Source: Engraulis encrasicolus
Taxonomy: Eukaryota > Chordata > Actinopteri > Clupeiformes > Engraulidae
Length of the DNA: 64,000 nt
Assembly: GCF_034702125.1 (NCBI RefSeq)
Contig: NC_085868.1
Location: forward strand, 42,612,888-42,676,887
Reading direction: 5' to 3'
The translations under genes and the position numbers were made by a program. Numbering within the stretch: the first letter of the stretch is position 1; each line of letters begins with the position of its first letter. The notes beneath the pieces are model-generated. The model was not told the origin of the DNA. It did no database searches and saw only the letters and a list, made by a program, of their open reading frames with translations. Positions 18,154 through 54,472 of the stretch are shown here, one piece after another.

Positions 18154-18174
18154 ACTCCCTACCTCCCCCCTTTG
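18154..18174 (-). other. Second polypurine tract just after env
   Basis: AAAGGGGGGAGGTAGGGAG on the minus strand, starting 29 bases after the env stop codon. It is longer than the LTR-proximal tract but the following sequence does not start like an LTR. Could be an extra plus-strand primer or the border of an older LTR arrangement. Confidence 0.45.
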
Positions 18175-18202: not shown

Positions 18203-21200
18203 TCACACTCGACTTGACTGGAACTCTGTTTCTTGAAACCCCTCATCTTGAGCCCTGCCCATTAGTTCATAGAGACGATTTTCAACGTCTGGGTCAAGTA
18301 CATTCTCCCTTCTGGTGAGTTCTTCCATTGGGCCTAGGACTATCAGTTGTTTCTCAATGACATTAGTGAAAGTTTTAGAACAGATCTTCCCACAGCATGC
18401 AGTTATGCAACACACCAGGGCAGCCACTATCACTACGCCCAACATCACCTTAAGTACCCAGCCCAGAAAGGTGGTCCCAAAGGAGCCTATGGTGTTTGTC
18501 AGTGACGCCCAACCTGATGAGAAGAAGTTTCCTACTCCTGACCAGTCTAGCCCTTTGTCCTTCCCTGCATGGTAATGGGCTACATCTCTTACTCGTATCA
18601 GATTGGACATGGCCTCTTGGAATTGGTTGTCCAAGTCAGGGTTATACGCTGCGGGGATCCAAGTACAACAATCTTCCCCAACTATCGCACACATGCCTCC
18701 TTCCTTTGCTGCTAGCCAGTCAACTACCAGACGTAATTGAAGCGTCATCTTATTGTTTGCGACCAAGCTCTCGGTTAACCAGTTCAGTCTTTCATTAAGG
18801 ACATCCAACGCCGTTATTGTGTAGTTCATGAATTGCTGTTGATTGTAATAAACGAAATTTATCCATTTAATGTTTTCTGAAACCATCAGGGCTGTCCCAA
18901 TGATTGGTATTGCAGCTACAAATCCCCCTATAACCCTATCCCGGGCAGTGAATTCGGTTGGCACGTCTTCTATTGAGGTCATTTTAAAACTCGGCAGACT
19001 TGAGTCGGAGGATCTTTTAGACCGTTTGATAGCATTGTCTATGTAATCAGTGGAATTTAGTCTGGATAGGGGAAGGATATTTGTTCTCTGCCCTATCCTC
19101 ACCCACGCACACGTACCTGACCAATTCCATGGCAGTGTTTTCCGTAAACCATATTTTGGTCCACAGGCCCAGAAGAACTCGTCAATTGGAGTCATTGTTG
19201 CTATTATGCCTGGGTGATATGGGCTAAATCCGTTTTCCAGAGCACAAACGGCATGCACTGGATTTGGGCCTGCAGATGGACATGCGTCTAGTACTCCCCA
19301 AGTACCACTTAAGTCCCTTGTCCATGTGTGCCCACACCTTCCCTTAAAGGTGCCCACATCCTCCCAGTCATCCCCAAGATCATCGGGGATGGTGCCACGC
19401 CATCTTGTCTTATTTTGAGCTGGGCCATGAAAGCACTCATATTTTGCCGTTCTGTCTACTGCATAGTCCTTTATCCATGCATCTTGGCTTTCAGTTATGT
19501 TTGGGAACTTCCTTTTACATACATCCAATACTAGTACCCCATTTTGGAAACGGTTGGGATTGTTCCAAGGATGGTCTGCACTACCAATTTCAAGTACACA
19601 CCGGGGAAATGAAACGTTTTCCACATTTCCACCCCAGGCAGGAAACCCTTTCTCCACACCAGATTCCTCTTGTTTCCACCCATCTAACAAAGAAAATGGG
19701 ACCGGAACAGCATAGGTTTTCAACCACTGTTTGGAACACACATAACAGTCCCCTTCAGGATATAAAGATCTGGCTGTAAAGTCTGCCCAGTGGAGCCAGG
19801 CATTGGTTTCAAACCATTCAGAAATGTCATTTGTGAGTTCACGCTTCTTGCGGGGATGTCCTGTGTTAGCATCCCACCGACGCATGTAAATGTCGGCAGG
19901 GGACCAATTATCAGGGTCCTTAGTTGTTCGTTGTAGACATGCAAAGTAGTGCTGGTCCCCTTCCTGCATGCCTGTTACCTGCATCATAATTCTTCTTTGC
20001 TCGACATCGTTCCAAACTTTTGCCCTAATCTCTTTCGCGACATGTATTTCGCGCGGCTCTTCCTGCTGTCCGCTGCTAAAATTAGCCAGTCTTTTAAAGC
20101 CTCCTGACTGCCACACCCACACGGATTCAACTGTGTCTGGGGTGTAGGGACATCTCATAAGGGCATCGTTTCCTGATACCTGGGAGCCAACAGGGGTACT
20201 TTGGGCTACCTGCAGGTCATCCCTGCCCAACCCCCTCTCAAGTTCAACGCCCTCAGGTGTCAGGGTCATACCCTTGGTCAACTCTGTTTGTGTGTCCAAG
20301 TCTCCCATTCCTCCGTTGCCTGAACTAGTTATGCCTAGCATTTCGTCCTCCTGGGGGATATCTGTTCCCAGGGGTGTCAGTGTCTGTGTCTGTGTCTGAT
20401 TTGCTTTCACCTTCGGACTCATCATACTCCCAGTATGCTGCTGTGACTGGGTCATCGTCAGTTCCGAAAAGGTGAGGTCTGGAGAGGAGGTTGGCTTGTC
20501 GTACTGCATAGTCATCAGGGAACTCTGATAAGAGTCTTTCCCATGCACCCCCGTCGTCAGCTGCTGAATCAGACCATGACCCACCTGATGGTGCCGGTCT
20601 ACGGAAAGTTTCGGGGTCAAGGAGTTCATCGGGGAAGAGGTCTTCGACGTGCTCCTGCTCTGCCCCGTGCCCTCCCACACTCTCTCGATCGCTGGGTGGT
20701 TGGGAGTCTTCTTGGGGCCCAACGCCTCCTGGCTCGGGCCCGTATTCTGGAGTGTTTGGGTCATTAAGGTCTTCCAAGAACCCTCCGCTGACGAAAGGTT
20801 GGTCTGCTGGCCACCTCTCAATGTCTGGAAGCTCGTTTCCGACGTTGAGGGGGCTGGGACGTTCATCACGGGATCTCCTCTGCTCCACGCCTTCCTCTGG
20901 CTCCCCTCTAGGTACTTCTGGTTCCTCCGCTGGGGGCGGCTGTCCGTCATCGATGGTTGTAGGGTCATCCGCTCCCCCGTGCTCGGCATCCGGACCCACG
21001 ACGACCTCTCCTCCTGGCTCGGTGACTGGATCATCCGGCTGCTCAGGTCCGCCACTCTCTGGGTCATCTCGTCCGCGGTCGCTCGGCACGGCAGGTACCC
21101 TCCCCTCGTCCCCTCCTTCATCGGGCGCGGGGATACTGGATGGGTCTCCGGCGGCAACCGGATCCACGTTTTCTCCTGGATCTCGACCCTCCCGGAGCTC

Positions 21201-21478
21201 TGGATCACTGCTATGGTTACCTGCTGACAAAGATTCGGGAGAAAAGAGAGAAGGAGCCCCAGGCCCAGAAGGCCCAGGAGGTATCGGCGGAGTTTGGGAC
21301 GGCCCTCCGGCTTCATCCCGACCTGGGTCTGCCCCCCTTGGTGGTCCGTCACTGTCATCATCATTGTCACCCCCTCTTGGGGAGGACTCGGGAGGGTCAG
21401 GTGGCGGGTCATTCTCACCCTCGGATTCTCCACTTGGTCTTGGTGCCCTGTAACAACAGTTAAGGTGATACCACACAT
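18203..21478 (-). CDS. env: Retroviral envelope glycoprotein (gamma-type)
   Basis: About 1091 residues from the first ATG at 21478; the frame is open back to 21490 but without an earlier ATG. Residues 66-81 are a hydrophobic segment behind a polar leader, likely signal or signal-anchor. A basic RKKR site lies at 543-546, and a CYVC motif at 578-581 matches the CxxC of gamma-type SU. A second basic site, RSKR, ends at 822 and should be the SU/TM cleavage. A hydrophobic fusion-like segment is at about 849-866. An immunosuppressive-domain-like helix leads to a CX6CC motif at 930-938, and a membrane anchor lies at about 1004-1033, followed by a ~60-residue tail. Several N-x-S/T sites occur. The first ~384 codons overlap pol in another frame. 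The message is presumably spliced. No inactivating stop is visible. Confidence 0.9.
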   Translation of the reverse strand: MCGITLTVVTGHQDQVENPRVRMTRHLTLPSPPQEGVTMMMTVTDHQGGQTQVGMKPEGRPKLRRYLLGLLGLGLLLSFLPNLCQQVTIAVIQSSGRVEIQEKTWIRLPPETHPVSPRPMKEGTRGGYLPCRATADEMTQRVADLSSRMIQSPSQEERSSWVRMPSTGERMTLQPSMTDSRPQRRNQKYLEGSQRKAWSRGDPVMNVPAPSTSETSFQTLRGGQQTNLSSAEGSWKTLMTQTLQNTGPSQEALGPKKTPNHPAIERVWEGTGQSRSTSKTSSPMNSLTPKLSVDRHHQVGHGLIQQLTTGVHGKDSYQSSLMTMQYDKPTSSPDLTFSELTMTQSQQHTGSMMSPKVKANQTQTQTLTPLGTDIPQEDEMLGITSSGNGGMGDLDTQTELTKGMTLTPEGVELERGLGRDDLQVAQSTPVGSQVSGNDALMRCPYTPDTVESVWVWQSGGFKRLANFSSGQQEEPREIHVAKEIRAKVWNDVEQRRIMMQVTGMQEGDQHYFACLQRTTKDPDNWSPADIYMRRWDANTGHPRKKRELTNDISEWFETNAWLHWADFTARSLYPEGDCYVCSKQWLKTYAVPVPFSLLDGWKQEESGVEKGFPAWGGNVENVSFPRCVLEIGSADHPWNNPNRFQNGVLVLDVCKRKFPNITESQDAWIKDYAVDRTAKYECFHGPAQNKTRWRGTIPDDLGDDWEDVGTFKGRCGHTWTRDLSGTWGVLDACPSAGPNPVHAVCALENGFSPYHPGIIATMTPIDEFFWACGPKYGLRKTLPWNWSGTCAWVRIGQRTNILPLSRLNSTDYIDNAIKRSKRSSDSSLPSFKMTSIEDVPTEFTARDRVIGGFVAAIPIIGTALMVSENIKWINFVYYNQQQFMNYTITALDVLNERLNWLTESLVANNKMTLQLRLVVDWLAAKEGGMCAIVGEDCCTWIPAAYNPDLDNQFQEAMSNLIRVRDVAHYHAGKDKGLDWSGVGNFFSSGWASLTNTIGSFGTTFLGWVLKVMLGVVIVAALVCCITACCGKICSKTFTNVIEKQLIVLGPMEELTRRENVLDPDVENRLYELMGRAQDEGFQETEFQSSRV

Positions 21479-24400
21479 CTGAACCTTCAACTCTTACCGC
21501 TCTTCCGGTGGCCTTCACTACCTTGTACGGTCCCTCCGCTCTAGGGTCCAGACAAGATCGGTTGAATACTCTCAGGAACACGTAGTCCCCTGGACGCACC
21601 GGCAGCCCTTCTTCCTCTGCATTCCTCCCCAGACGTCTTTCTCTTGCCTGTTGCTCATTATAAATAGTTTTGTGAATATTACACAGTTGCAAAATATACT
21701 GTCTTATTTCTCGACTCAACGCCTCGGCGGGCGGTCCCTGTCCATCTCGCAATCTTGGGGTTGGCATAGCCCTCCCCGTGAGCATTTCGTGTGGTGTCAA
21801 GTGGGTGCTTCGGTTTACCTCACATCTCATTTTCATTAATGCCAGCGGCAGGGCATCCACCCAGTTCAAACCTGTACTTTGAGTGATTTTTAGTACCTTG
21901 TTCTTCAGCGTACCATTTGCTCTCTCCACCATCCCTTGGCTTTGAGGATGATATATACATCCAAACCTCAGTCGTATACGCATGCGCTGGGCTACTTTTT
22001 TCCACACGTTAGCGATGAAGCTCCGCCCATTGTCACTGGAAATAGTCTCAGGAATTCCAAAGCGGGGCACCAGTTCTCTTGTCAAAAAGTTAGTAACAGT
22101 CTTCTCATCCTGCCTTGGGCTGGGACATGCTTCAACCCATCTCGAGAATCTACACACCACTACTAACACATATCTCATACCTCTCACTGTTTTGATCATG
22201 TCTATGTAGTCCATTTGTAAATGTTTAAATGGCCCATCAGGAAGGGGAATGTGTCCTAGGGGTCGTGGAGCTGTACCTTTTCTAATGTTGTTCATACTGC
22301 AGATTCTACAATGTCGAAGGACAAAGGATATTCTGTCTTGTAGACCAGGGGCCCAGAATCCTGATTTGAGGACTTGGGTCTTCACCTCCCCTTTTGCACA
22401 ATGATCAGGTTCATGAGCAACCCAGATAATAGTATCTAAGAAGCTATGTGGCGCTACTATTCGCCCGTCAACAAATCGCCAAAGACCAGTCTGGTCTTGC
22501 ACTGCACCCCTCTCTTCCCAAGCTTGTTTCTCCCATTCAGAAGCTGCTTCTTGTATAGGTCTTATATGATCATAGTAAAATTCAGGTATTGTTAGGTTTG
22601 TTCTTCCTCGCTCACGGATAGGTATCACCCGCCCCCTTAACACCCGCCCTGCAAACTCTCTATCTGTCTCGTTTGTTGGGCTCCAAGACTCAGTGTCATC
22701 CTCAGAGTCTCCCTGCACTGGGCATTGGAGCCTCTTCGCAGGTATTGGTATGGGTGTACCCTTAGGTATGCATGGGAAGTCAGCACATAAAGGGCAGTCT
22801 GCTCGTTGACAGAGAGCACATATTAATGGCTCGAAGTGGTGGAAGTGTTCATCTCCTATTCCGGAGCTACACCACTCGCAACCCTCGTTTTGCCCCTTCA
22901 TGTAGGGACAGGGCAACCCTCTCACCTGATGGTAGTGGGGGTGTGGGTCTACCAGCACTCCCATGGTTTTCTCTTCCTCTCGTTCTGGGGTCAGTTTCCT
23001 CATGTAGTGCTTATGGCCTTCTACCCACATCCTTGCTTTCTGCTTTCGTCCCTTTCTGAGTGCTATTGACTCGTCTTCTGAGTCTTCTTCCCAATTAGGC
23101 TCGCGGCCCTCTACCCAGTTGCAGAGGCCTGATTTCTCTTGCTTCCAATACTTCCCCATTACTACTGCTTTAAGATATTTAGTTAATACAACTGCCTGGC
23201 ACAGGTCAGGCACAAGTATATCTACTCTATGCCTGCCTATGCACTCTTCAGCTGCTTCTAGTAATGCGGCCATGCTAATGGCTGGGTCATGTCCATACTC
23301 CCCACATCCGAATAATGGGACGGTTATCACTCGGGCTTCATATGCTGTACATGTCTGGAATGCATTCTTGTATAACCCTTTCAATACTTGGGCAGACCCT
23401 TCAGGCCCAGTCAATCCATTCCTGTATACCATAGGGACGTGTATTATACGATGAAAGGCCCAACCTAAGTTATATGGTTTGGTTTCGAACACTTCTCCTG
23501 GCTGTAAAGGGCCTATCTGAGATATCCGGGTCTCACATTCTTCTTGATAGTCATTTCCTGCCAAGTGTTGGATAATTCCTGACACTCCCCCTATATTTGT
23601 GAGGTATTGGTCTGTTGGGTTCACCAGGGAATTTCCTAAGTTCGAGGGTGTATATTCTTGTAAAAATACTGGTCTTACGCTGATATTTAATGCTGTTTCT
23701 CTGGATACTAATCCTCTAGTAATTGGTATAGGTGTTCGGTTATCTGGATTTGGTACCATCCTCCCCTGTGCTTCATACCCAAACTCCTTTTCCTTCTTGG
23801 TACGTCTTCCTCCTCTTTCTTTCCCTATGATGGCGGGTAACATGGTATCAGGGTATCGTGGTTCACAATATCTGCTGGCACACTCCGGGCATTCTGACCT
23901 CTGGCACAGAGCACATACTAATGGCTCGACCGTATGTTTGTGATTCTGACTGTCTATCCACTGTGAGCACCACTTACACTCTTCTTTGGATGGGAATGGG
24001 CATGGTGCTGGGCACCTAACTCGCACTCCCCTTTCTGCCATTATATGCCATTGGATGGTGGCTGGTTGTACTACCATGACGGTTGTCTCAGGCTTGGTCA
24101 CCAGATGTCTGGCCTTAAGCGCTGCTTCTTTGGCGACCTCATCTGCCTTTGCGTTGCCCAATGTGATATAGTCCTGCCCTTTGGTATGCGCTTTGCACTT
24201 ACAAATGGCCAATCTGTCTGGCAGCATCATAGCCTTAAGCAGCTGCACTATTTGATGCATATGTTGGATTGGACTGCCGTCCGTTTTCTTGAATCCTCTT
24301 TGTTTCCACTGTGCCCCATGTACATGACACACACTGTGGGCATATGCACTGTCTGTGTGAATGGTCACTTCTTTTCCTTTCCCCAATTGGCACGCTGCAG

Positions 24401-27400
24401 TTAACGCCTTTAGTTCTGCTAGCTGCGCAGAACATGGCTGGGCACATGGTTCACACATTACTGTCACAAATTGTGAGGTGAGCCATTCAACCACACTAAA
24501 TCCTGCATGTGTTTTGTTGTCATAGTTATGGCTTGATCCGTCTACAAAGTAGACATTTCCTCTCTCTAGAGGTTCGCTTGCTAAGTCCTCCCTCAATTTT
24601 GAAAATGCTTTGGATTGTGCCACACATGCATGTGGTTCTCCGTCATAATCTGCTGGTATGTAATCAGCAGGGTTGGTAGCCATGTCACACGTTTTTATTG
24701 TTACATCTACAGCGAATGGAAGGTTATAATATCGTAACTGTCTCTGCGGAGTCAGACAGAACCTTCCCTGCTCTGCTAACTGGGCTATCGCATGGCTTGT
24801 GTAAATGGTTACAGGCCATCCCATCGTCAAGGCGCTTGCCTTGGTATAGGCCACATATACGGCATCCAAACTTTGATAACATGGCGGATAACCTTGTGCC
24901 ACGCTGTCGAGTTTGGTGCAATAGTAAGCAATTGCTTGTCTCCCTCTTCCGACGCACTGGCTCTGAGACAAGATTGCGGCCATATATGTGTCTCGCCCAG
25001 GCTCCTTCCTAGTTGTGACATATAGATTAAATGGCTTTGTATAATCGGGCATGGCCAGCGCTGGCGCTGTCTGCATCTGTTGTTTTATTCCCTCAAACGC
25101 TTGTTCTGCATCATGGTTCCATGTTAACCGATTTGATAATTTATCCGTACCGGCACTTGTTATCAGAGCCCTCAGAGGGGCAATCTTTTGCTCATAGCAT
25201 TCTATCCATTCACTGCTGAATCCTATCAGTCCTATGAATGACATTAATTGCTTCACAGTTATCGGTTTGGGTGCTTTAGTTATTGCTGCTATATGTTCAG
25301 GGGCTAGCCTCTTCTCTTCTTGGGATATCAGTCGTCCAAGGTAGATTACTTGTGTTTGTGCAAACTGCAACTTTTTCCTGGACACTTTGTACCCTCTTTC
25401 TGCCAGCACCTCTAATACTTGTGCTGTGTCCTTCTCGCACGTTTCTTTGTCAGGCGAAGCTATTAATATGTCATCGACATACGACAAGAGGATTGATTTG
25501 CAATCTACGTGTTTTAGATCTTCCGTTAACACTTGATTGAACACGTGCGGCGAGTGCTTAAACCCCTGGGGGAGTCTAGTGTACAAGAGAGTCTTTCCTT
25601 CGTATTGGAACGCAAATAGGCCGTGGCATGATGATGCTACTCGTACTGCGAAGAATGCTTGTACTAAATCAAGTACCGAGAAGTATTTGGCCTCTTTTGG
25701 GATATTGGTAAGTAATACGTGTGCATTTGGCACGTCTGCAGGATAATCCTCAACTATGTCATTGATAGGCCTTAAATCTTGTATCATTCTCCATCGAACT
25801 CCATCTGCCTTTAGTATGGGCCAAATGGAGGTGTTACAGTACGCCTTTGCCACTTCTTGCAGTACCCCTGCCTTGAGTAGCTCCTCGATGGTTCCCCGTA
25901 TTCCCTCTCTGGGCTCGTCACCCAGCCGATGTTGACGCTGGAATGGAAGCACTGCATGGGGTTTTAGCTTAAATTCTACCGGGCTGGCTGATGTTATCAG
26001 TCCGATATCTCCATCCCCTTGGGACCATACTGACTTTGGTACATGGGCTAGCTGCAAGTCTATTGGATCACTTGGTTCTGTTTCATCTAGTATTGTGCAC
26101 ACTCCTGCTGTTCTTTTCTGCTTACAGGGCTTGTTCCTACAGATAGGGCACTTTTCCCTACGGCATATCGCGCATCCTAATGCCATAAAATCATGGTTGT
26201 GTTGGGGTGTCTCATCTGATGAGTCGGGTGTTTCTAATTCCGTACTCTCTATCCTCCGGTTATCTCTTGGATAGAGGTTAGGCTTGGGCGCATGGCTGCA
26301 CCATTCACAATCATCTTCTCCATAGGGACATGGTTCTGGACACCGAATTAGTCTACTCCCATCTGCCCCATGTCCCTGCCATCTTGCATAATGAGAGCGA
26401 AATGCGAACCGGTCCCAGTCTGGGTCTTTGGAAGTGAATGGGACATGGTTGTCTGTGTCCCAACACCTATATCCTGATCCCCCAAACAGCCTATAGAGAC
26501 AGTAGGGGTTTCCGTATGGACAATCTTTGGTGTACTTAACTTCTGGATCTCCGGAGTCTGCATTTTCATCCAGTATTACTACCTGTGGGCTTCCCCAGTA
26601 TTTCTCTGGGTACCCTTCATTCGTGAGTTTGTACATTTGATTTCCTCCACTTCCAGAGCTAGATAATTGCCATCCTTCTCGCTTTTCCTGGAGGGGCTGC
26701 CACTCAGCATATCTCGCCCTTAGCATTATGGGGCCCATATCTTGGGCCCGGAATCCTCTCCCCACTCTGAGGGTGATATGTGGAGTGGTTCCTGGCATCT
26801 GGAAGTGATGTATAAGTTTCTCTCGTAATGGTCCTTTCCCGAATCGCACATCAGCAGCTATTCCTTCAGCCGCAATAATAATGGCGTGTATTTCCATTGG
26901 ATATAAGGTTTCTGGGTCCATATCTCTTAACCACTTCTCTTCCCTCTCCTTATTAATTCCCTTATCAAACTGTAATGTACAGTGATATGGCGTCCGTGGT
27001 GTCCTTAGTAATTCATGTGTTTCTCTTTTAAAGACTTCTCGCTCGATTCTTTCAGTTATGTGTTTGATATTTGGTTCGAAATTACTTATCCAGTATACTT
27101 GTCGTGGTTGGTCAATTTCAGATCTATACCACTCTGGGTCTGCTGTTTCTTGAGCCTCAGGTGTATCAACAAGTCTTGCTACCATTTGCTTTGATAGTCC
27201 TGGAATCTCAACTCCCTCGGGTGTACACTCTATACTCAGTCCCAATCTACAGAGCGCGTCTCTTCCAAGGAGGTTGACTGGGGTACTTTCAGCTATTAAT
27301 ATTGGAATTTTGATTTCCCTGTCTTCAATTCTAATTGTCACTGGAACGGTCATGGGGCTCAATTGTGTTTCCCCTGAAAAGCCAACAGTCTTCCGGAATT

Positions 27401-27578
27401 TTCCTTTGGACAACGGGAGGTGCAGGGCATCTATTGGCTGAAGACAGGTGTATGTGGCGCCAGTGTCGACTAAGCATTTAACGCTCTTCCCCGCAATGAG
27501 TACCCTGAGCTGGGGTTCTCCATCGGCTCCTTTTGATATTACAAGGAGCTGACCCTCCCTTGGCTTTTCTGGGCCTCG
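20325..27578 (-). CDS. pol: Retroviral Pro-Pol polyprotein with extra macro-like and 2H-like domains
   Basis: The frame is the same as gag and opens right after the gag UGA, so translation should be by readthrough; about 2417 codons. Numbering from the codon after UGA: protease 1-116 (DTGA at 38-41, LLGRD at 103-107); 2H-like segment 193-305; Cys/His module 1 about 353-485; reverse transcriptase about 525-750 (LPQG near 669, YVDD at 700-703); RNase H about 1005-1155 (acidic D, E, D, D all present); Cys/His module 2 at 1189-1238; macro-like domain about 1298-1475; Cys/His module 3 at 1556-1603; integrase about 1690-2040 (HHCC finger, D,D35E core complete, GPY motif); then ~370 acidic, proline-rich residues overlapping env. 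Usual retroviral Pro-Pol is about 1100-1200 residues. All catalytic motifs look intact. Confidence 0.93.
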   Translation of the reverse strand, partial: RGPEKPREGQLLVISKGADGEPQLRVLIAGKSVKCLVDTGATYTCLQPIDALHLPLSKGKFRKTVGFSGETQLSPMTVPVTIRIEDREIKIPILIAESTPVNLLGRDALCRLGLSIECTPEGVEIPGLSKQMVARLVDTPEAQETADPEWYRSEIDQPRQVYWISNFEPNIKHITERIEREVFKRETHELLRTPRTPYHCTLQFDKGINKEREEKWLRDMDPETLYPMEIHAIIIAAEGIAADVRFGKGPLREKLIHHFQMPGTTPHITLRVGRGFRAQDMGPIMLRARYAEWQPLQEKREGWQLSSSGSGGNQMYKLTNEGYPEKYWGSPQVVILDENADSGDPEVKYTKDCPYGNPYCLYRLFGGSGYRCWDTDNHVPFTSKDPDWDRFAFRSHYARWQGHGADGSRLIRCPEPCPYGEDDCEWCSHAPKPNLYPRDNRRIESTELETPDSSDETPQHNHDFMALGCAICRREKCPICRNKPCKQKRTAGVCTILDETEPSDPIDLQLAHVPKSVWSQGDGDIGLITSASPVEFKLKPHAVLPFQRQHRLGDEPREGIRGTIEELLKAGVLQEVAKAYCNTSIWPILKADGVRWRMIQDLRPINDIVEDYPADVPNAHVLLTNIPKEAKYFSVLDLVQAFFAVRVASSCHGLFAFQYEGKTLLYTRLPQGFKHSPHVFNQVLTEDLKHVDCKSILLSYVDDILIASPDKETCEKDTAQVLEVLAERGYKVSRKKLQFAQTQVIYLGRLISQEEKRLAPEHIAAITKAPKPITVKQLMSFIGLIGFSSEWIECYEQKIAPLRALITSAGTDKLSNRLTWNHDAEQAFEGIKQQMQTAPALAMPDYTKPFNLYVTTRKEPGRDTYMAAILSQSQCVGRGRQAIAYYCTKLDSVAQGYPPCYQSLDAVYVAYTKASALTMGWPVTIYTSHAIAQLAEQGRFCLTPQRQLRYYNLPFAVDVTIKTCDMATNPADYIPADYDGEPHACVAQSKAFSKLREDLASEPLERGNVYFVDGSSHNYDNKTHAGFSVVEWLTSQFVTVMCEPCAQPCSAQLAELKALTAACQLGKGKEVTIHTDSAYAHSVCHVHGAQWKQRGFKKTDGSPIQHMHQIVQLLKAMMLPDRLAICKCKAHTKGQDYITLGNAKADEVAKEAALKARHLVTKPETTVMVVQPATIQWHIMAERGVRVRCPAPCPFPSKEECKWCSQWIDSQNHKHTVEPLVCALCQRSECPECASRYCEPRYPDTMLPAIIGKERGGRRTKKEKEFGYEAQGRMVPNPDNRTPIPITRGLVSRETALNISVRPVFLQEYTPSNLGNSLVNPTDQYLTNIGGVSGIIQHLAGNDYQEECETRISQIGPLQPGEVFETKPYNLGWAFHRIIHVPMVYRNGLTGPEGSAQVLKGLYKNAFQTCTAYEARVITVPLFGCGEYGHDPAISMAALLEAAEECIGRHRVDILVPDLCQAVVLTKYLKAVVMGKYWKQEKSGLCNWVEGREPNWEEDSEDESIALRKGRKQKARMWVEGHKHYMRKLTPEREEEKTMGVLVDPHPHYHQVRGLPCPYMKGQNEGCEWCSSGIGDEHFHHFEPLICALCQRADCPLCADFPCIPKGTPIPIPAKRLQCPVQGDSEDDTESWSPTNETDREFAGRVLRGRVIPIRERGRTNLTIPEFYYDHIRPIQEAASEWEKQAWEERGAVQDQTGLWRFVDGRIVAPHSFLDTIIWVAHEPDHCAKGEVKTQVLKSGFWAPGLQDRISFVLRHCRICSMNNIRKGTAPRPLGHIPLPDGPFKHLQMDYIDMIKTVRGMRYVLVVVCRFSRWVEACPSPRQDEKTVTNFLTRELVPRFGIPETISSDNGRSFIANVWKKVAQRMRIRLRFGCIYHPQSQGMVERANGTLKNKVLKITQSTGLNWVDALPLALMKMRCEVNRSTHLTPHEMLTGRAMPTPRLRDGQGPPAEALSREIRQYILQLCNIHKTIYNEQQARERRLGRNAEEEGLPVRPGDYVFLRVFNRSCLDPRAEGPYKVVKATGRAVRVEGSDVWYHLNCCYRAPRPSGESEGENDPPPDPPESSPRGGDNDDDSDGPPRGADPGRDEAGGPSQTPPIPPGPSGPGAPSLFSPESLSAGNHSSDPELREGRDPGENVDPVAAGDPSSIPAPDEGGDEGRVPAVPSDRGRDDPESGGPEQPDDPVTEPGGEVVVGPDAEHGGADDPTTIDDGQPPPAEEPEVPRGEPEEGVEQRRSRDERPSPLNVGNELPDIERWPADQPFVSGGFLEDLNDPNTPEYGPEPGGVGPQEDSQPPSDRESVGGHGAEQEHVEDLFPDELLDPETFRRPAPSGGSWSDSAADDGGAWERLLSEFPDDYAVRQANLLSRPHLFGTDDDPVTAAYWEYDESEGESKSDTDTDTDTPGNRYPPGGRNARHN
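21459..22508 (-). other. Integrase domain of pol
   Basis: Within pol: an H-x3-H plus C-x2-C zinc-binding head, then the catalytic core with Asp (LQMDYID), Asp (SSDNG) and Glu (MVERANG), with exactly 35 residues between the last two. A GPY motif follows near the end. Catalyses insertion of viral DNA into the host genome. Confidence 0.9.
22770..22913 (-). other. Cys/His module 3 of pol
   Basis: CPYM(x)6CEWCS, then HxxHH and EPLICALCQRADCPLC ending in FPC. Spacing of Cys and His suggests bound zinc. It lies between the macro-like domain and integrase and is clearly homologous to modules 1 and 2. Confidence 0.75.
23154..23687 (-). other. Macro-domain-like segment of pol
   Basis: About 178 residues with the expected order of macro-domain signatures: a VNPTD segment (usual VNAAN), a GGVSGII loop followed by HLAG, an E-rich helix, a HRIIHVP strand (usual V-I-H-x-V-G-P), and a VITVPLFGCGEYG loop (usual P-x-I-S-T-G-x-F/Y-G), then an Ala-rich helix. 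Macro domains bind ADP-ribose and some remove it from proteins. The second Asn of the first motif is Asp here, which may alter activity. Identified by eye; position between RNase H and integrase is unusual for a retrovirus. Confidence 0.8.
23865..24014 (-). other. Cys/His module 2 of pol
   Basis: CPAPCPFPSKEECKWCS, then HKH and EPLVCALCQRSECPEC ending in RYC. Lies between RNase H and the macro-like domain. Same pattern as the modules at 22770-22913 and 26124-26342. Confidence 0.75.
24114..24566 (-). other. RNase H domain of pol
   Basis: Acidic catalytic residues appear in order: VYFVDGSS, AELKAL, IHTDSAYA and NAKADEVA. This set is complete, so the domain should degrade the RNA strand of RNA-DNA hybrids. 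Confidence 0.9.
25329..26006 (-). other. Reverse transcriptase domain of pol
   Basis: Contains the primer-grip and finger motifs of the family: a WRMIQDLRPIN segment, a VLDLVQAFF segment carrying the first catalytic Asp, LPQGFKHSP, and the YVDD catalytic box at 25470-25481. Confidence 0.95.
26124..26342 (-). other. Cys/His module 1 of pol
   Basis: CPEPCPYGEDDCEWCS, a longer linker than in modules 2 and 3, then HDFMALGCAICRREKCPIC ending in KPC. An additional CPYGNPYC motif precedes it at about 26500-26522. Lies between the 2H-like segment and reverse transcriptase. Confidence 0.7.
26664..27002 (-). other. 2H-phosphoesterase-like segment of pol
   Basis: Two H-x-T-hydrophobic motifs, YHCTLQFD and PHITLRVG, lie 68 residues apart, each at the end of a predicted beta strand. 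This is the defining catalytic pair of the 2H phosphoesterase superfamily (LigT, AKAP7, coronavirus NS2). It sits between protease and module 1. The rest of the fold cannot be confirmed by eye, and 68 residues is at the short end of the usual spacing. Confidence 0.55.
27230..27578 (-). other. Aspartic protease domain of pol
   Basis: Begins at the codon after the UGA. VKCLVDTGATYTCL carries the catalytic D-T-G-A, and NLLGRDAL gives the conserved C-terminal G-R-D. Would cleave Gag and Gag-Pro-Pol as a dimer. Confidence 0.9.
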
Positions 27579-27581
27579 TCA
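27541..27581 (-). promoter_or_regulatory. gag-pol UGA readthrough site with downstream hairpin
   Basis: The gag stop is UGA followed by C, a leaky context, and pol continues in the same frame. Starting 16 bases downstream, CAAGGGAG and CTCCTTG can pair across a 6-base loop with one bulged G. Gammaretroviruses use UAG with a pseudoknot at this point; here the codon is UGA. Confidence 0.6.
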
Positions 27582-30500
27582 ATAAGGGGCTCCCCCATAC
27601 GGGGAAGCTGGCCCTTGGGCTCCGGTTTGTGTTTGTGGGATTTGTTGCAGTCCTCCTGCCCCTGTGTTGGTTCCTGTTGGGTCATTCACAGCCTGTTGTT
27701 GTTGCTGTCCAAGTTGCTGCGGGTTCAGGCCCTGTTGGCTCAGCCATTTGGGGCAATTTCTCTTTATGTGATTCAGGTCTCCGCATGTCCAGCAACCTGG
27801 TTGGTTATTGAATTGTTGTTGGTTACCTTGGTTATTTCCCTGGCCCTGTCCTCCCTGTCTTCCCTTTTGCTGTCTATTTGGGTTCCACTGTCTCTGTCCT
27901 TGGCCTCTCTGCTGGTTGTTTACCAAGGTTTGAATTGATTGTTGCAGGAGCCCTAGTTGCTGTTGTGTGGCGAGTTGTGCTTGTTCCAGGGCACTCACAG
28001 GGGCACCCACAGGGGCACTCACAGGGGCATTCGCAGGGGCACTCACAGGAGGCTGACTCCCGCCTCCTGGTGCTTGTTGAGGGGTTAGATTGGTTCCTTG
28101 ATTTACTACGGCAGCCTGGATTCCCAGTTTCTCCTTTTTGGCATTCTTGCTTACCTCCTGGATCTGCATTTGAGTTAATTTGTATAGTGCGTCTTCATTG
28201 CGGCGTTTTCTCTCTTCTTGCTCTTCTCTGTATGAGTTGACATGGTAGACCACTATGGTGGTGAATTCTTCCCGTGAGGTGGTTTCTATACGTGATTCCG
28301 CCTTTACTTTTGCCCTCACGGCCTCTGGGAGAGCATTCATGATTGCTTTCCTGAACATCATGCGGTCAGCCGGTGCAGAGTCAGGTTCTCTGTCCATTCT
28401 TATCTTATACTCCTGTGCTGCCTTGCTGATGAATACTGCTGGGTTGTCATCGTCCTTCATTTTTCCTATAAAATCTCCTGTGCATCTAGTCGGGTACTTT
28501 TTCCGTAGCTCCTCCCAAATCTTCGAGCGGAAGTGGTTCAGGTTGTAGCAATCCTTAGCGGAATGTGACATGATGTCCCCTAGTCCTGCTGCCTTAAAGA
28601 CAGCATCAGTGTCTGCATATCCTATAGTTTTGTTGAGGAGGTACTTCACATCTCCTAGGGTCACATGAATGTTGATCATTTCCTTTTCAAACTGGCTTAT
28701 CCACATTCCTGCCCCGTCCTCCAGCACTGGCAGTTTGTTCATGCAGGACTCACAGTCGCTGTGCTTCCATGGTTCATAGTTGATTCGGTTGTTCTTGATT
28801 ACCAGTGGGGCCATTATTTCTGCTTCATGCTCCGATTCATCTGTCTCCTCCTCCATGGGCCTGGGTCGGTGCTTTTGTCTCTTCTTATCTTCTTTCCGTT
28901 CCTTTTCCAATCCTTTCCTGGATTTGTTGATGCCCTTTTTAACTCCGCATTCTATCTCGTCCAGCCCTTTCTTCATTCCTCGGCGCATGGTGCTGACTCC
29001 TTTTTCTACTCCTTTCTTCATTTTCTTGAGGCTCTTCAGGCCTAGAGCAGTCATGGCCGGGGATAGGAGCAACATTGTTTCTCGCTGGTCGTCGTTCAGT
29101 CGTATCTTGACTATCCCTTGTTGACAGGCTGGATTTTGGGATTGTCGTCTGTGTTGTGTCAACCCTCTGGCTCCTCTGAACATCTGGTGACAGGAGGGAC
29201 ACTCGCCTTCCCTCATGGGTATGGCATATCCTACTGCTCCTTCTGGATCTCTTAGTGACCCGTGTTCATCTTCCTCGTCTTCTTCTTCCTCATATCCGTC
29301 TTCTTCCTTCTCGGATTCTTCCTCGGAGCCTTCCTCATCATCGTTGTCCTCCAGGATCTCATGTAAGGTCCGGGTCAGATTCAGTATGTCTTCACTGTCG
29401 CGGACCGTATCTTCTCTTAGTTTGCGCGCGTCAGCTTTGACTTTCTGGGTTTCTTTCCACAATTCCCTGTTTTCCTCACGGGTCTCCTGTCTTGTCCTTT
29501 CAATGACTTCTCCCAGTTTTCTTAGGGCTTCTTCCGTCCGGGCTGCCCTTGAATTGACGTTCTCCATTTGTTGTTCAATTATCACTCCTGTCATCAGATC
29601 GTCATGCTGTCCTCGTTCCAGACCCTTCAGCCAGTCCTCATGTCGACTTTGTCGCTTGTCGACGTGGTTGCCCAGGAGTCTTACCTCATTCTTGAGATCT
29701 TGATGGTGTGCGCGGATTTCTCCTCGCTCTCTTCTTGCTTCAGTGTTGACCCTGTCTTGTAAGGTGAATTTGTCATTGAATGCTTCGTTCATCCTGTCTT
29801 GGATATTCCATAGTCCTCTCTCAGCCCATTGCGGGAGAGAGGATCTCTGCTCTGTTGCTGGTTCCTTGCTTCCATGCCCCTCAGTCGTCCTCCTGGTGGG
29901 TTGGCTGACGACGAAGGTGCTTCTTTGTGTAGTTGCACTTGGTTGTCCTGGATGCTGGCTGGTCACACTGCTTCGTCTCACTTCTGCCCTTCCTCCTGGG
30001 GAACTAGTCCTGGAGCTTGGGTCTTGGAACGTTACTGCTGGTCCGCTCCCTCTCAGCTCGCTTTCTTCCAGTATTCGGTTGTATTGGGCGGCTCCTTCTC
30101 TGTCCCAGGACTCCAGCAGCGCTGTGGTCTGGGCCGCAAGGTTATCTGGGTTGACACTCTCCAATAGTGTTTCGTGTCGGGTTGCCATGCTTGTGGGACT
30201 CACTGCACGGCTTCCTCCTGATGTTGGGTCCATCGTTGGTCTTAAAGGGCTCATCGCACGGTTTCCTCTACTTACCTGCTCCATCGAGTCCCCGACTGTG
30301 ATTGGGGACTGTAGGGCAGAGGGTCGGTCTTGCTCCCTTTCAGGCGGGCATGCTGGAGTCGAGGTCATCATGGCAGGTCCTCTGCCGTCCCTTCCTCCTG
30401 GCATTCTGGTTGTCATTGGTTGAGGGCGAATATGCATTGCGTCCTCAACCAGTCCTCTTGCGGCTGCTCTTCCATCACCTAGGGCATTTACCAGGGTCAC

Positions 30501-31085
30501 TAGTTCATCAGTGGGCCCCTTAAGCCCTATTGAATCCAGATGTACTTCGTCCCCAACATCAATGTTAGGGCACATCCAGGCCGGAACCTGATGGTGCGGG
30601 GCGCACTGGTGTTTTCTTGATCTTGCTATCTGTGTATATGGTGGGCCTCCCGTGGGTCCTTCTCTCAGTGTTGGAACTGCAGGATAGAGCTGGTTTGGTG
30701 GGCTAACAGAAGGGCATGCCCCTGTGGCAGGGGCATATGGAGGGGGCCTTGCTGGCCCTGGGTCCCCAGCTGCCTCAATTTTCTTGTTCTTTTCCTTCAT
30801 CTTGCTTTCCTCGATGTGTTGCGCGCCTAGTCTCATGAACTCCTTCAGGACTTCAAGCTCTGTTTCTCGTTTAACGAGCCTTTTCTCTCCTCTTTCTGCT
30901 TTTTTATAGTTTTTTATTTTCTCCTCCATCTGCACTAGCAAGGACATTAGGAGTGATCCTTCTTTAGGCCATGGGGTGGCGTCCTTTTTAGTCCTCTCAG
31001 CCCATTTTTTACTTACATTTTCCACGACCAGCCGACTGGCCGCATTACTCCTGATGACCATTTGTATTGGGGTTATTTCTGCCAT
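27579..31085 (-). CDS. gag: Retroviral Gag polyprotein, unusually large
   Basis: 1168 residues from ATG 31085; typical Gag is 500-650. No N-terminal Gly for myristoylation. Residues 1-110 are basic and helical (matrix-like). A PPPY late-domain motif is at 114-117, with a second PPY motif near 147. Residues ~120-600 are an extra disordered, charged region with coiled-coil potential and a long acidic run. A C-x2-C-x12-H-x8-C finger starts at 629, followed by a Lys/Gly repeat segment of KKG/EKG type. A capsid-like region spans about 758-1010 and ends in a charged helix with REEQEERKRR, like gammaretroviral Gag. Ala-Pro-Val repeats (12-bp DNA repeats near 27983-28048) follow, then a CCHC zinc knuckle at 1098-1111. 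Ends at UGA 27579-27581, read through into pol. Confidence 0.92.
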   Translation of the reverse strand: MAEITPIQMVIRSNAASRLVVENVSKKWAERTKKDATPWPKEGSLLMSLLVQMEEKIKNYKKAERGEKRLVKRETELEVLKEFMRLGAQHIEESKMKEKNKKIEAAGDPGPARPPPYAPATGACPSVSPPNQLYPAVPTLREGPTGGPPYTQIARSRKHQCAPHHQVPAWMCPNIDVGDEVHLDSIGLKGPTDELVTLVNALGDGRAAARGLVEDAMHIRPQPMTTRMPGGRDGRGPAMMTSTPACPPEREQDRPSALQSPITVGDSMEQVSRGNRAMSPLRPTMDPTSGGSRAVSPTSMATRHETLLESVNPDNLAAQTTALLESWDREGAAQYNRILEESELRGSGPAVTFQDPSSRTSSPGGRAEVRRSSVTSQHPGQPSATTQRSTFVVSQPTRRTTEGHGSKEPATEQRSSLPQWAERGLWNIQDRMNEAFNDKFTLQDRVNTEARRERGEIRAHHQDLKNEVRLLGNHVDKRQSRHEDWLKGLERGQHDDLMTGVIIEQQMENVNSRAARTEEALRKLGEVIERTRQETREENRELWKETQKVKADARKLREDTVRDSEDILNLTRTLHEILEDNDDEEGSEEESEKEEDGYEEEEDEEDEHGSLRDPEGAVGYAIPMREGECPSCHQMFRGARGLTQHRRQSQNPACQQGIVKIRLNDDQRETMLLLSPAMTALGLKSLKKMKKGVEKGVSTMRRGMKKGLDEIECGVKKGINKSRKGLEKERKEDKKRQKHRPRPMEEETDESEHEAEIMAPLVIKNNRINYEPWKHSDCESCMNKLPVLEDGAGMWISQFEKEMINIHVTLGDVKYLLNKTIGYADTDAVFKAAGLGDIMSHSAKDCYNLNHFRSKIWEELRKKYPTRCTGDFIGKMKDDDNPAVFISKAAQEYKIRMDREPDSAPADRMMFRKAIMNALPEAVRAKVKAESRIETTSREEFTTIVVYHVNSYREEQEERKRRNEDALYKLTQMQIQEVSKNAKKEKLGIQAAVVNQGTNLTPQQAPGGGSQPPVSAPANAPVSAPVGAPVSALEQAQLATQQQLGLLQQSIQTLVNNQQRGQGQRQWNPNRQQKGRQGGQGQGNNQGNQQQFNNQPGCWTCGDLNHIKRNCPKWLSQQGLNPQQLGQQQQQAVNDPTGTNTGAGGLQQIPQTQTGAQGPASPYGGAPY

Positions 31086-31849
31086 GGTGCGTGATCTGTT
31101 TATTAACGCCCCTTATGCTTTTTGGAAAGTTGTGGAAATCTATCGATATTGTACCGTGTATTTAAAGAATCTCTTTTAGGGGTATGCTGATGAGTGACTG
31201 CAAAATATATTAGTTGTGTTCTATTAGTTTTAACTCTATGTATACTAGCAGTGCTAGTCTTGAGCTACAGTGTACAGTATGTACTTCACTTTCCCCTAAG
31301 GGATTTAGTTTTACTTCACTTATTGCGTAATTTCCGTCTTCTGTTTTCCTAATTATCAAGACTTTACTTTGTTTTTGATTGCAATAGGTATGATCTGCAT
31401 TCATTTCATAAACCCGTTATGATTAATTACCCAGTTCCACACCTTATTTCAGTTTTCCGCCTTCTTCCTTTTATTTAAAATTTATTTGAGTGACATACAA
31501 AACATAGTCCCCTTTGTGATCAAGTTTATTTTCGGGGACACCGTGACCCAATACAATTTTGTCTAACAGTGCATGACTAACATAAGTACCTTGTGGTCTA
31601 TTTACTTTGAAGTTCAGCAATGGTTTGATTTCATAAACAGTGCCCTTCATGCAGCAGCTCTTAAGGAGCTGTCCGTGCCTAGTCACATACAATGTCCTTT
31701 AATATGGCATTCATCGATACAAACAGTCCAGGTAAATAAGTGCTTAGACCTTTTTCACACAGAGTAACATAGAGTTATACCAATGTTAAATGCAAGAACT
31801 TCTTCAAAGGTTTTAAGGCATACAGGCTATAGTCACCTTGGGCAATCTT
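31086..31849 (-). other. Interval between upstream ORF and gag
   Basis: About 760 bases. One ATG-started frame of 64 codons (31210-31404) and one frame without ATG (31471-31692, 73 codons) share a register and look fairly protein-like, but stops separate them. They could be a decayed or spliced small accessory gene; I do not recognise either. Confidence 0.3.
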
Positions 31850-32968
31850 TTATTCACTGCTCTTGCTTTCCGTCCTTCTAGTATGCTTGTACAATGAATC
31901 AATCAGAGCTCGTCTCACTAGTTCTCCTGGACGGAGAATAGCACAGGATTCATCAATTACCCTGTGTAGGGCCAAGTAAGGCAGGTCAGTGGGAAGGCTA
32001 GACCTGTTGTTTGTGGTGCGCTTAGTTTTAGCATTCACCTGGAATTTAGATCTTGTGTTCACTTGGTATTTCCCTGTACCTTTTAAGTTCAGTATGGTAA
32101 TCTCTGTCCCTGACACCAGGGTGCTTGGGCACCACTTTCCCTCAGGAAGCCTCCTCGTGGTGCGAGGCCCTCGCCACTTTAATCTCTCACTTTCTTGCTC
32201 AAGTTGTGCTATCTCTCTATTCTTTCTCTCGATCACGTTACCAATCTCTGCTTCTTCTCCCTCTTGGCTCAAATTTGACACATAAGCTTCCTTCCACGCA
32301 TGCAACTCACTCTCCCCCTGAGTTATGATCTCATCAATCCTTTCCCCAGACACACCCCTCCCCAGTAATCCTTGTCCCCACTGTTTTAGCTTTGCTATCT
32401 GCTTCTCGACACGCACGCTAAACCTTGCCTCAAGAAGCGCTCTGTTGTGCTCCCAATCCTCACTATCTTGCCTTGCAATTGTCCCTGACGTTCCCTCGCC
32501 AGGATCTTCTACCTCCCTAGCCTCTTGCCCTGCCTCCTCTACTTCGTCTCCTTGCTGATCCTCATCTATAAATGGGCTGTCAGCAAGAGCGAATATGTAT
32601 TCTTCTATGTCGTGAAGATCTGGCAGAACATCAGTAAGAAAGTTATCATTAAGTTCATCACAGTTTTCCGGTACAGTCGGGCTATAGGGGTTAGGTGAGT
32701 CGGGTGGGGCTTCTTCCACTTGGGGCTGTACGGGTGGGGCTTCTTCCACTAGGGGCTTTACGGGTGGGGCTCCTCCCGCTCGGGGCTGTGCTAGGTAAGA
32801 TGGGAGCTGGAAGTCGAGTGGATAGCCACTGCGTGCACGGAGTCCGTCAATCAGCCACTTCTCCACAGCCTCAAACACATCACACTCATCGCACAACGTC
32901 GTGGTCCCGGATACGAGATACTTTACAGGCTTTATAGGAAGCTCTTCAATGACCAGGGTCCTTTTCAT
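31850..32968 (-). CDS. Accessory protein encoded upstream of gag
   Basis: 372 residues from ATG 32968, the most 5' ORF of the provirus. Residues 1-60 contain Cys-x2-Cys in TLCDECDVF and a helical stretch. Residues 64-89 are three copies of a 10-residue Pro/Glu motif (GGAPPVKPLV type) encoded by 30-bp DNA repeats at about 32700-32789. Residues 100-175 are acidic. A helical segment follows at about 172-200 and a likely coiled coil at 240-265. The C-terminal third is basic. No family recognised. Walleye dermal sarcoma virus also has an ORF (orf C) between leader and gag, but I see no sequence resemblance. Open without defects, so probably a real viral gene. Confidence 0.65.
   Translation of the reverse strand: MKRTLVIEELPIKPVKYLVSGTTTLCDECDVFEAVEKWLIDGLRARSGYPLDFQLPSYLAQPRAGGAPPVKPLVEEAPPVQPQVEEAPPDSPNPYSPTVPENCDELNDNFLTDVLPDLHDIEEYIFALADSPFIDEDQQGDEVEEAGQEAREVEDPGEGTSGTIARQDSEDWEHNRALLEARFSVRVEKQIAKLKQWGQGLLGRGVSGERIDEIITQGESELHAWKEAYVSNLSQEGEEAEIGNVIERKNREIAQLEQESERLKWRGPRTTRRLPEGKWCPSTLVSGTEITILNLKGTGKYQVNTRSKFQVNAKTKRTTNNRSSLPTDLPYLALHRVIDESCAILRPGELVRRALIDSLYKHTRRTESKSSE
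32700..32789. repeat. 30-bp tandem repeat x3 inside accessory ORF
   Basis: Three imperfect units starting CGGGTGGGGCTTCTTCCACT on the plus strand. A multiple of three, so the frame is kept. Confidence 0.85.
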
Positions 32969-33102: not shown

Positions 33103-33395
33103 GGCCTTTAAACAAACAAAGAGACAGACAAACATACCGCAGCCAAAAACCCTTAGCTACCCGGGATCCCGATAACCTGTGAGAGAACCTTCTCACAAAA
33201 TGCGCATACCACGGCAAAGCCGCAAACCTTCTTGCAAGACAACAAACAAAGACAGACAAACACACCGCAGCTAAAAACCCTTAGCTACATGGGTACCCAA
33301 ATCCAGTGAGATAACCTTCTCACAAATGCGCATACCACGGCAGAGCCGCAAACCCCCTTGCAAGGAAAACAAACAGACAGACCAACATATAATAC
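33103..33395. repeat. 126-bp tandem repeats running into the gap
   Basis: Two units and the start of a third; for example TGCGCATACCACGGCA recurs at 33201 and 33327. The repeat continues up to the Ns, which suggests the assembly broke in this array. It probably belongs to the viral 5' leader or 5' LTR border. Confidence 0.8.
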
Positions 33396-33495
33396 NNNNN
33401 NNNNNNNNNNNNNNNNNNNNNNNNNNNNNNNNNNNNNNNNNNNNNNNNNNNNNNNNNNNNNNNNNNNNNNNNNNNNNNNNNNNNNNNNNNNNNNN
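33396..33495. other. Assembly gap (100 N)
   Basis: Exactly 100 Ns, which is usually a placeholder of unknown size. The missing 5' LTR (expected ~1.9 kb) and primer-binding site are probably hidden here, since no LTR-like sequence appears just to the right. Confidence 0.95.
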
Positions 33496-53359: not shown

Positions 53360-53666
53360 TAAGTCTAACAGCACACTCTTTGTTCATAATGTGTTAATAA
53401 TGTAATGTGTCATTAATATTTCTGATTTACAGTCACATTTCACTGGTACTAAAACATAAACACTATAATTGTTAAAAAAAAAAATAGGATACATGTTATA
53501 AATATTTTACTACTTTAATTATATCTCATGGTATTGTATAAGAAAATCGAAATCTTTTTGTTTTTCAAAAGTTGAGTGACTACAGTGTCTGTGAGATATT
53601 AAAATTGTGTTTTTGAGTTACTGCTCTAACATATTTTGAGTTATTTGTTTGCTTTCTATTCTTAGA

Positions 53667-54472
53667 CCTGTGGTAAGTCCATCCCTCCTTCAGTGGAGAG
53701 ACTTCACGAGATGCTTCAAGATCCAAACATGGCCCAAAGTCTGCAAGTCCAGATCTGCATCATGACAGATAAGTGCAAAGTGATTGTAGGTCTTCTGGAC
53801 ATCTTCCAGAGCAGACGTCCAATCGTTACGAAAGCCATCGATTACCTGGAGGATCTTCATATGAAGTTAGAGGCACACAAAGATCTCAGCTACGACTCAT
53901 GCGTGGAATATTTTGAGGGAGTTGATCTGTCCTTTGCAATCAAGATGCAGATTGTAAACAGAGTGGCACAGGCATACATCACTGCAGAGGAGAAACTCAG
54001 CAAGTACATGTCTGATGGACAACCTGCCATTCACTTCCTCAAAGAGGTCAGGGTCTTCGATCCTCGTCACATTTCGTTCATGAGCGACAGTGTCTCTACC
54101 TACAAATCCATCCCAGGATTCAGTGATGTCCCTGATGATGAACTGGATACCTACTTCAGACGCCTTGGCCCAGCTGCAGTGCATGCTGCCTCCTGTGGAG
54201 TTGTGGATATAGATCTGTTCTGGGATGGGGTAAGAGAGAGACTGCCCATACTCAGTGGCCTGGCCATCAGGTACAAGTGTGTGATTGTGAACTCGGCAGA
54301 TGCTGAGCGTAGTAACAGCATCTACAAGTTGGTGCTGTCCAACCGACGGAGATCAGTTTCGAACAACAATCTCAAAGCCTTAGTGTTTTTGTACCACAAT
54401 CAGAGGGTTGCCAGTAGAGCGTTTGAGGAAACAGATTTTGAGACCTTTGATGAGTTGTTTCCAGAGGTCTAA
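53667..54472 (+). pseudogene. hAT transposase, C-terminal exon
   Basis: Follows an acceptor (CTATTCTTAG) and is open for about 268 codons to TAA... specifically stop TAA/TGA class codon at 54470-54472. It contains SVERLHEMLQDPNMAQ, FDPRHISFMSDS and a terminal NSADAERSNSIYKLVLSN...NNNLKALVFLYHNQRV segment, which matches the hAT C-terminal dimerisation region. No break within this exon. As part of an element whose central exon is broken I call it a pseudogene. Confidence 0.7.

What the first reader, a model, noticed from the sequence alone, without database searches (positions are those of the whole stretch)
23154..23687. Macro domain inside a retroviral Pol polyprotein
Seen: a ~178-residue segment between RNase H and integrase shows the ordered macro-domain signatures (VNPTD, GGVSGII, HRIIHVP, VPLFGCGEYG). 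Known: macro domains bind or hydrolyse ADP-ribose, and alphaviruses, coronaviruses and hepatitis E virus use them against host ADP-ribosylation. I know of no standard retrovirus genus with one. Inference: this fish retrovirus may counter PARP-based defence, or use ADP-ribose binding during replication. An Asp replaces the second Asn of the usual first motif, so activity is open.
Basis: partly seen in the sequence, partly recalled or inferred. Interest (0 to 1): 0.9.

Follow-up and report, generated by a model that had tools for sequence, protein, structure and literature searches.

The report
Macro domain inside a retroviral Pol
An endogenous retrovirus family in this animal genome carries an ADP-ribose-type "macro" domain built into its replication polyprotein, kept in diverged copies although its enzyme site has decayed, so it probably binds something rather than cutting it; macro domains in fish retroviruses had been reported before.

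The parts
23154..23687 (-). macro domain (PF01661 core 23274-23624) inside Pol
20325..27578 (-). pol open frame, 2417 codons, same frame as gag after a single TGA (27579-27581)
27231..27521 (-). aspartyl protease (PF00077)
26631..27122 (-). piece with a probable 2H phosphoesterase domain: HxT motifs YHCTL and PHITL, invariant in three lineages
   Evidence: Pfam LigT_PEase only sub-threshold
26097..26360 (-). Cys/His-rich module, copy 1 (before RT)
25335..25811 (-). reverse transcriptase (PF00078, matched in two pieces); LPQG and YVDD present
24120..24554 (-). RNase H (PF00075)
23844..24032 (-). Cys/His-rich module, copy 2 (between RNase H and macro)
22740..22928 (-). Cys/His-rich module, copy 3 (between macro and integrase)
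22284..22451 (-). integrase zinc-binding H2C2 (below Pfam cut-off)
22008..22235 (-). integrase core (rve, matched part); SSDNG motif present
21462..21596 (-). integrase C-terminal domain, MLV type (PF18697, 29.3 bits, cut-off 29.2)
20325..21461 (-). about 378-residue acidic, Pro-rich Pol tail overlapping the env frame
27579..31112 (-). gag open frame, 1177 codons; CCHC zinc knuckle just below cut-off
18203..21493 (-). env open frame, 1096 codons: TLV_coat, basic cleavage site, CX6CC, membrane segment
31850..32968 (-). 372-codon ORF upstream of gag, no family match above cut-off
18162..18173 (-). polypurine tract candidate just 3' of env
33396..33495 (.). 100-N assembly gap where the 5' LTR would be expected

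Best explanation
This is a class I (gamma/epsilon-like) endogenous retrovirus lineage whose Pol polyprotein has taken up extra domains. The macro domain would be made as part of Gag-Pol by reading through one UGA, be packaged in the particle at Pol levels, and be released, or left joined to RNase H or integrase, by the viral protease. Shown: the domain, its place, its retention in diverged copies. Inferred: it works as a ligand-binding or scaffolding part (ADP-ribose, ADP-ribosylated protein or another phosphate-bearing ligand) in the incoming particle or pre-integration complex, and not as an efficient ADP-ribosylhydrolase. If the pair has an active enzyme it is more likely the 2H phosphoesterase.
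For: Macro followed by integrase in 4 of 4 copies examined of this Pol type (window, C4, C1, C1194), and preceded by RT and RNase H in 3 of 4 (not C4, which is disrupted there). The C1 and C1194 pieces are 64% identical to the window's over about 1,500 residues and open (whole open frames 2429 and 2339 codons). In the 164-codon macro segment, without indels, the five diverged pairs (from three lineages) have pN 0.26-0.36 against pS 0.69-0.81, with dN/dS 0.16-0.19 in the 3 pairs where dS is finite. Loop 1 is not kept (NPTD, SPVN, NPVS), while LFGC..Y.HDPAISMAA is shared by all four. 33 of 33 homologues in the alignment have N, G, G, D and H where the window has D, N, I, S and Q; most are close enterobacterial relatives, so not 33 independent cases. 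2H motifs are invariant in 3 of 3 lineages. Gag and pol share a frame across one TGA.
Against: Binding was not measured. The column of the adenine-contacting Asp holds Tyr, and C1194 has lost both loop-2 glycines (LFGCRNYQ), which speak against ordinary ADP-ribose binding. Macro is less conserved (49-56% identity) than RT/RNase H (82-86%) or integrase (74-83% among window, C1, C1194), so constraint may be weak. dS is at or near saturation, so dN/dS is rough. Window against C4 gives 0.59 on very few changes; C4 is broken. C1 keeps an Asn at the catalytic place though it loses the first one.
Confidence: 0.46

Rival explanations
1. The macro domain is an active ADP-ribosylhydrolase that removes antiviral ADP-ribosylation.
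For: Fold match to active enzymes; other viral macro domains do this (PMC7729036 and PMC10499221, passages); intact frame.
Against: Second Asn is Asp (window, C4) or Ser (C1194); neither the classic D/H pair, the alphavirus Cys nor the coronavirus HGGG is present in the window copy; the loop-2 hydrophobic residue is Glu in the window, though Val in C4.
Confidence: 0.13
2. 2H and macro act in sequence on the RNA-repair by-product ADP-ribose cyclic phosphate: 2H opens it, macro removes the 1''-phosphate.
For: Both domains in one polyprotein in three lineages. PMC9503650 describes 2H acting on Appr>p and macro on Appr-1''p (passages and section 3.4.1).
Against: Macro site decayed; the 2H assignment rests on motifs and sub-threshold profile scores.
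Confidence: 0.12
3. The domain is a passenger or spacer between RNase H and integrase with no ligand.
For: Faster change than RT and integrase; loop-1 residues drift and C1194 loses loop-2 glycines; Cys/His module 3 is partly lost in C1 and C1194.
Against: pN well under pS across old divergence, no indels in 164 aligned codons, LGWAF and HDPAISMAA unchanged in all four.
Confidence: 0.24
4. Chimera, misassembly or a host exon caught in frame.
For: A 100-N gap lies in the provirus region.
Against: The macro-integrase join recurs on four different contigs and the RNase H-macro join on three; the gap lies upstream of all four long open frames, over 400 bases from the nearest.
Confidence: 0.01

Closest known systems
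Fish epsilon-like ERVs with CNPase or macro domains (Basta et al. 2009, J Virol 83:10152, as told in PMC4977317)
   Same: Endogenous fish retroviruses reported to carry a CNPase or a macro domain
   Different: The review calls them additional open reading frames; here both lie inside the Pol frame. The paper itself was not held, so it may describe this very arrangement.
Cane toad (Rhinella marina) endogenous retrovirus, protein A0A2U9K508, named Gag
   Same: Its predicted structure matches the window's macro model (E 6.0e-8, prob 1.00, 22% identity)
   Different: In a protein named Gag, not Pol; its sequence was not seen
Walleye dermal sarcoma virus
   Same: Epsilonretrovirus with an ORF 5' of gag (PMC3185748, passages); 2H domain reported (PMC9503650, passages)
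   Different: No macro domain is named for it in the passages read; its sequence was not compared
Coronavirus and torovirus polyproteins with macro and 2H domains
   Same: Macro fold embedded in a replication polyprotein; 2H domains in several nidoviruses (PMC9503650)
   Different: Nonstructural proteins of RNA viruses; in PMC10221186 (passages) no coronavirus Mac1 had lost its catalytic residues
PARP14/PARP9 macro domains, macroH2A, E. coli YmdB
   Different: Host or bacterial proteins; site residues differ

Membership tests
Macro domain (PF01661) | profile score above the curated cut-off | tested here: met
   61.6 bits against 22; C1 47.9 and C1194 39.5 bits
Macro domain (PF01661) | alpha/beta/alpha macro fold | tested here: met
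Macro domain (PF01661) | binds ADP-ribose or a derivative | not testable with these tools
   needs a protein assay
MacroD-like ADP-ribosylhydrolase | NxxN with the second Asn | tested here: not met
   Asp in window and C4, Ser in C1194; Asn in C1, which lacks the first Asn
MacroD-like ADP-ribosylhydrolase | one of three catalytic-loop types (classic D/H pair, alphavirus Cys, coronavirus HGGG; PMC7729036) | tested here: not met
   window reads NIGGVSGIIQ
Retrovirus, class I | RT closest to gammaretroviral type among solved structures; MLV-type integrase end; TLV-coat Env | tested here: met
   RT best rows E 2.3e-55 to 1e-53, which I recall as XMRV/MLV entries; Pr125Pol (recalled as foamy) 5e-30; HIV-2 5e-10; HIV-1 about 1e-5; PF18697; PF00429. 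No tree was built
Retrovirus, class I | paired LTRs | tested here: inconclusive
   no pair found; assembly gap at 33396-33495
Epsilonretrovirus (genus) | placement in a Pol tree with known members | not tested
   no named epsilonretroviral sequence was at hand
2H phosphoesterase | two HxT/S motifs in hydrophobic surroundings | tested here: met
   YHCTL and PHITL; such a pair in 3 of 100000 shuffles; invariant in 3 of 3 lineages. The motif definition is recalled
2H phosphoesterase | profile match above cut-off | tested here: not met
   LigT_PEase 12.9 bits in the window, 16.3 in C1194, none in C1, cut-off 23.3
2H phosphoesterase | fold | tested here: inconclusive
   single-sequence model pLDDT 32.2

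The most novel reading that the evidence does not exclude
Retroviruses took up macro domains at least twice, once into Pol between RNase H and integrase and once into the Gag position, both present in one genome. In the Pol form, flanked by zinc-like modules and paired with a 2H phosphoesterase, the macro domain has turned from an enzyme into a particle-borne reader that may link the pre-integration complex to ADP-ribosylated chromatin or repair sites.
Probability: 0.2. Interest if true: 0.8.

Novelty: new variant of a known kind. Interest (0 to 1): 0.55.

Why it matters
ADP-ribosylation is a known front in virus-host conflict, but the viral side is best studied in RNA viruses that express macro domains in the infected cell. 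A retrovirus that carries one inside Pol would deliver it with the particle, next to integrase. A decayed catalytic loop in a retained fold would make this a natural test of binding without hydrolysis, beside the engineered N40D case (PMC10499221) and the recurrent losses described in PMC10221186.

Tried and rejected
Relatives outside the genome: protein database searches with the macro alone and with an RNase H-macro-integrase piece scored over residues 580-1000 gave nothing at E <= 1e-3. Viral contigs gave no relative with the macro, RT, integrase or 2H pieces nor a match to an RT pattern. PHROGs gave nothing at E <= 0.01. I suspect that these collections are poor in animal retroviruses, so the absences mean little. 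The 9 NCBIfam matches are all far below their cut-offs.

Host gene or chimera: rejected by the other copies. Foamy virus: rejected on RT similarity, without a tree. LTR pair: none found. A primer-binding pattern gave 0 matches. No tRNA and no Rfam match at gathering score in the window.

2H by structure: the single-sequence model failed. Profile of three lineages against PDB: one match only, E 0.65, to an unrelated phosphatase. Against E. coli ThpR, BLASTP paired both motifs but at E 0.15 and 0.63, and a global alignment did not pair the second motif. Cys/His module: no Pfam match above cut-off, best PDB match E 0.27. My strict spacing pattern for it matched copies 1 and 2 but not copy 3, and 0 of 20000 shuffles of each linker.

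Literature: all 10 paper searches used. Their listings show no paper titled or abstracted for a macro domain between RNase H and integrase; I opened passages of nine papers only. Basta et al. 2009 and Mazumder et al. 2002 were not held.

Full report

Surroundings. Reading 5' to 3' on the minus strand: a 372-codon ORF (31850-32968), gag (27579-31112, CCHC just below cut-off), one TGA, then pol in the same frame, then env, which overlaps the pol end. In Pol the order is protease, probable 2H phosphoesterase, Cys/His module 1, RT, RNase H, module 2, macro, module 3, integrase, and a tail of about 378 residues. RT resembles entries that I recall as XMRV/MLV most (E about 1e-55), those recalled as foamy at about 1e-30, and HIV far less. 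Env has TLV_coat, a basic cleavage site, CX6CC and a membrane segment. So it is most likely a class I retrovirus; no tree was built. LTRs were not found; a 100-N gap sits where the 5' LTR would be.

The Cys/His modules. Copies 2 and 3 match at BLASTP E 1e-15 and copies 1 and 3 at 1e-9 in single comparisons, with 19 invariant columns over the three. Copy 2 is well kept in C1 and C1194; copy 3 has lost several cysteines in both; the second half of copy 1 is present in both. Pfam and PDB gave nothing significant, and I recall no name for it.

The 2H domain. Two motifs, YHCTL and PHITL, lie 68 residues apart; a pair of that kind came up in 3 of 100000 shuffles of the same 200 residues. In C1 and C1194 both HxT are invariant, with PHITLRVGRGF identical in all three. 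Pfam LigT is below cut-off in two copies and absent in the third, the comparison with ThpR is weak, and the structure attempt failed. I hold it probable, not shown.

Other copies. The family search of the window's own assembly (1.43 Gb, 1,880 contigs) gave 34 macro matches from 47 candidates. I fetched pieces around 5 of the 33 others. C4 is 98% identical to the window over 604 residues, in a frame of only 647 codons. C1 and C1194 are 64% identical over 1,547 and 1,466 aligned columns, with open frames of 2429 and 2339 codons. Pfam finds RT, RNase H, macro and integrase in that order in C1 and C1194. In C4 the macro lies ahead of the H2C2 and integrase motifs, and the part 5' of it is disrupted: no RT motif and no module 2 in its frame.

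Selection. In the 164-codon macro segment the five diverged pairs, which come from three lineages, have pN 0.26-0.36 and pS 0.69-0.81. dN/dS is 0.16-0.19 in the three pairs where dS is finite and not computable in the two where it is saturated, so these values are rough. Window against C4 gives 0.59 on very few changes. I conclude that the domain was under purifying selection while these viruses diverged. Macro identity (49-56%) is below RT/RNase H (82-86%) and integrase (74-83% among window, C1, C1194).

The active site. At places where all 33 homologues in the alignment have N, G, G, D and H, the window has D, N, I, S and Q; the column of the adenine-contacting Asp has Tyr (the role of that Asp is from PMC7729036, passages, and the column match is mine). 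Loop 1 differs between lineages (NPTD, SPVN, NPVS), while LGWAF and LFGC..Y.HDPAISMAA are shared by all four. The loop-2 Glu of the window is Val in C4 and Thr in C1, and C1194 has lost both loop-2 glycines. N40D in SARS-CoV-2 Mac1 has under 1% of activity but binds ADP-ribose much as before (PMC10499221); N244D, the same residue in another numbering, nearly abolished activity (PMC7729036). Viral and host macro domains have lost activity repeatedly (PMC10221186, passages). I therefore favour binding or scaffolding over hydrolysis. The adenine-site change and the C1194 glycines are evidence against ordinary ADP-ribose binding, and a spacer role is not excluded.

A second macro-bearing retroelement. 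At C1077 and C21 a macro match starts 62 residues into the open frame, with NAAN kept. The frames are 1642 and 1695 codons. At C1077 the next ORF downstream, in another frame and overlapping, has RT and RNase H. This is the Gag position, though no Gag family matched. C21 was not followed downstream. BFVD row 26, a protein named Gag of the cane toad ERV, also matches the macro model. I did not test whether the two are related, nor whether the Pol and Gag-position macro domains share one capture.

Mechanism, step by step. Shown: domain, place, retention, gag and pol in one frame across a TGA. From established knowledge of retroviruses (recalled): Gag-Pol is packaged and cut by the viral protease. 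Inferred: readthrough here, packaging, cleavage sites, ligand, and a role near integrase or against host ADP-ribosylation.

Known or new. PMC4977317 (passages) says some fish epsilon-like ERVs include additional open reading frames for CNPase or macro domain proteins, citing Basta et al. 2009, which I could not read. PMC9503650 names alphaviruses, coronaviruses, flaviviruses, hepatitis E viruses and a bat tymovirus for macro domains among RNA viruses and no retrovirus in that section, but reports 2H domains in fish retroviruses (passages). So macro and 2H/CNPase domains in fish retroviruses are not new. The embedding inside Pol, the three Cys/His modules, the decayed but retained macro site and the Gag-position second case may be; the searches listed under Tried and rejected showed me no paper stating them. 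I call it a new variant of a known kind.

Noticed in passing
window 26631-27122 (-): Probable 2H phosphoesterase domain between protease and RT, both HxT motifs invariant in three lineages.
   Followed up: partly
window 26097-26360, 23844-24032, 22740-22928 (-): A Cys/His-rich, zinc-like module present three times in Pol, without a significant match in Pfam or PDB.
   Followed up: partly
L015, L016, L019 (C1077 and C21 of the assembly): A second retroelement with a macro domain (NAAN kept) near the start of a 1642/1695-codon ORF; at C1077 an RT and RNase H ORF follows.
   Followed up: partly
window 20325-21461 (-): Pol runs about 378 residues beyond the integrase C-terminal domain as an acidic, Pro-rich tail that overlaps the env frame; GC about 60% over 20501-21500.
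   Followed up: no
window 31850-32968 (-): 372-codon ORF before gag, starting at an ATG, no family match above cut-off; WDSV orf c is also 5' of gag.
   Followed up: no
window 27579-27581 (-): Gag and pol are in one frame separated by a single TGA followed by C.
   Followed up: no
window 33111-33387: Two copies of a repeat about 130 bases apart, ending at the 100-N gap, in the expected leader.
   Followed up: no
window 53666-54472 (+): hAT family C-terminal dimerisation domain in a 268-codon open frame.
   Followed up: no
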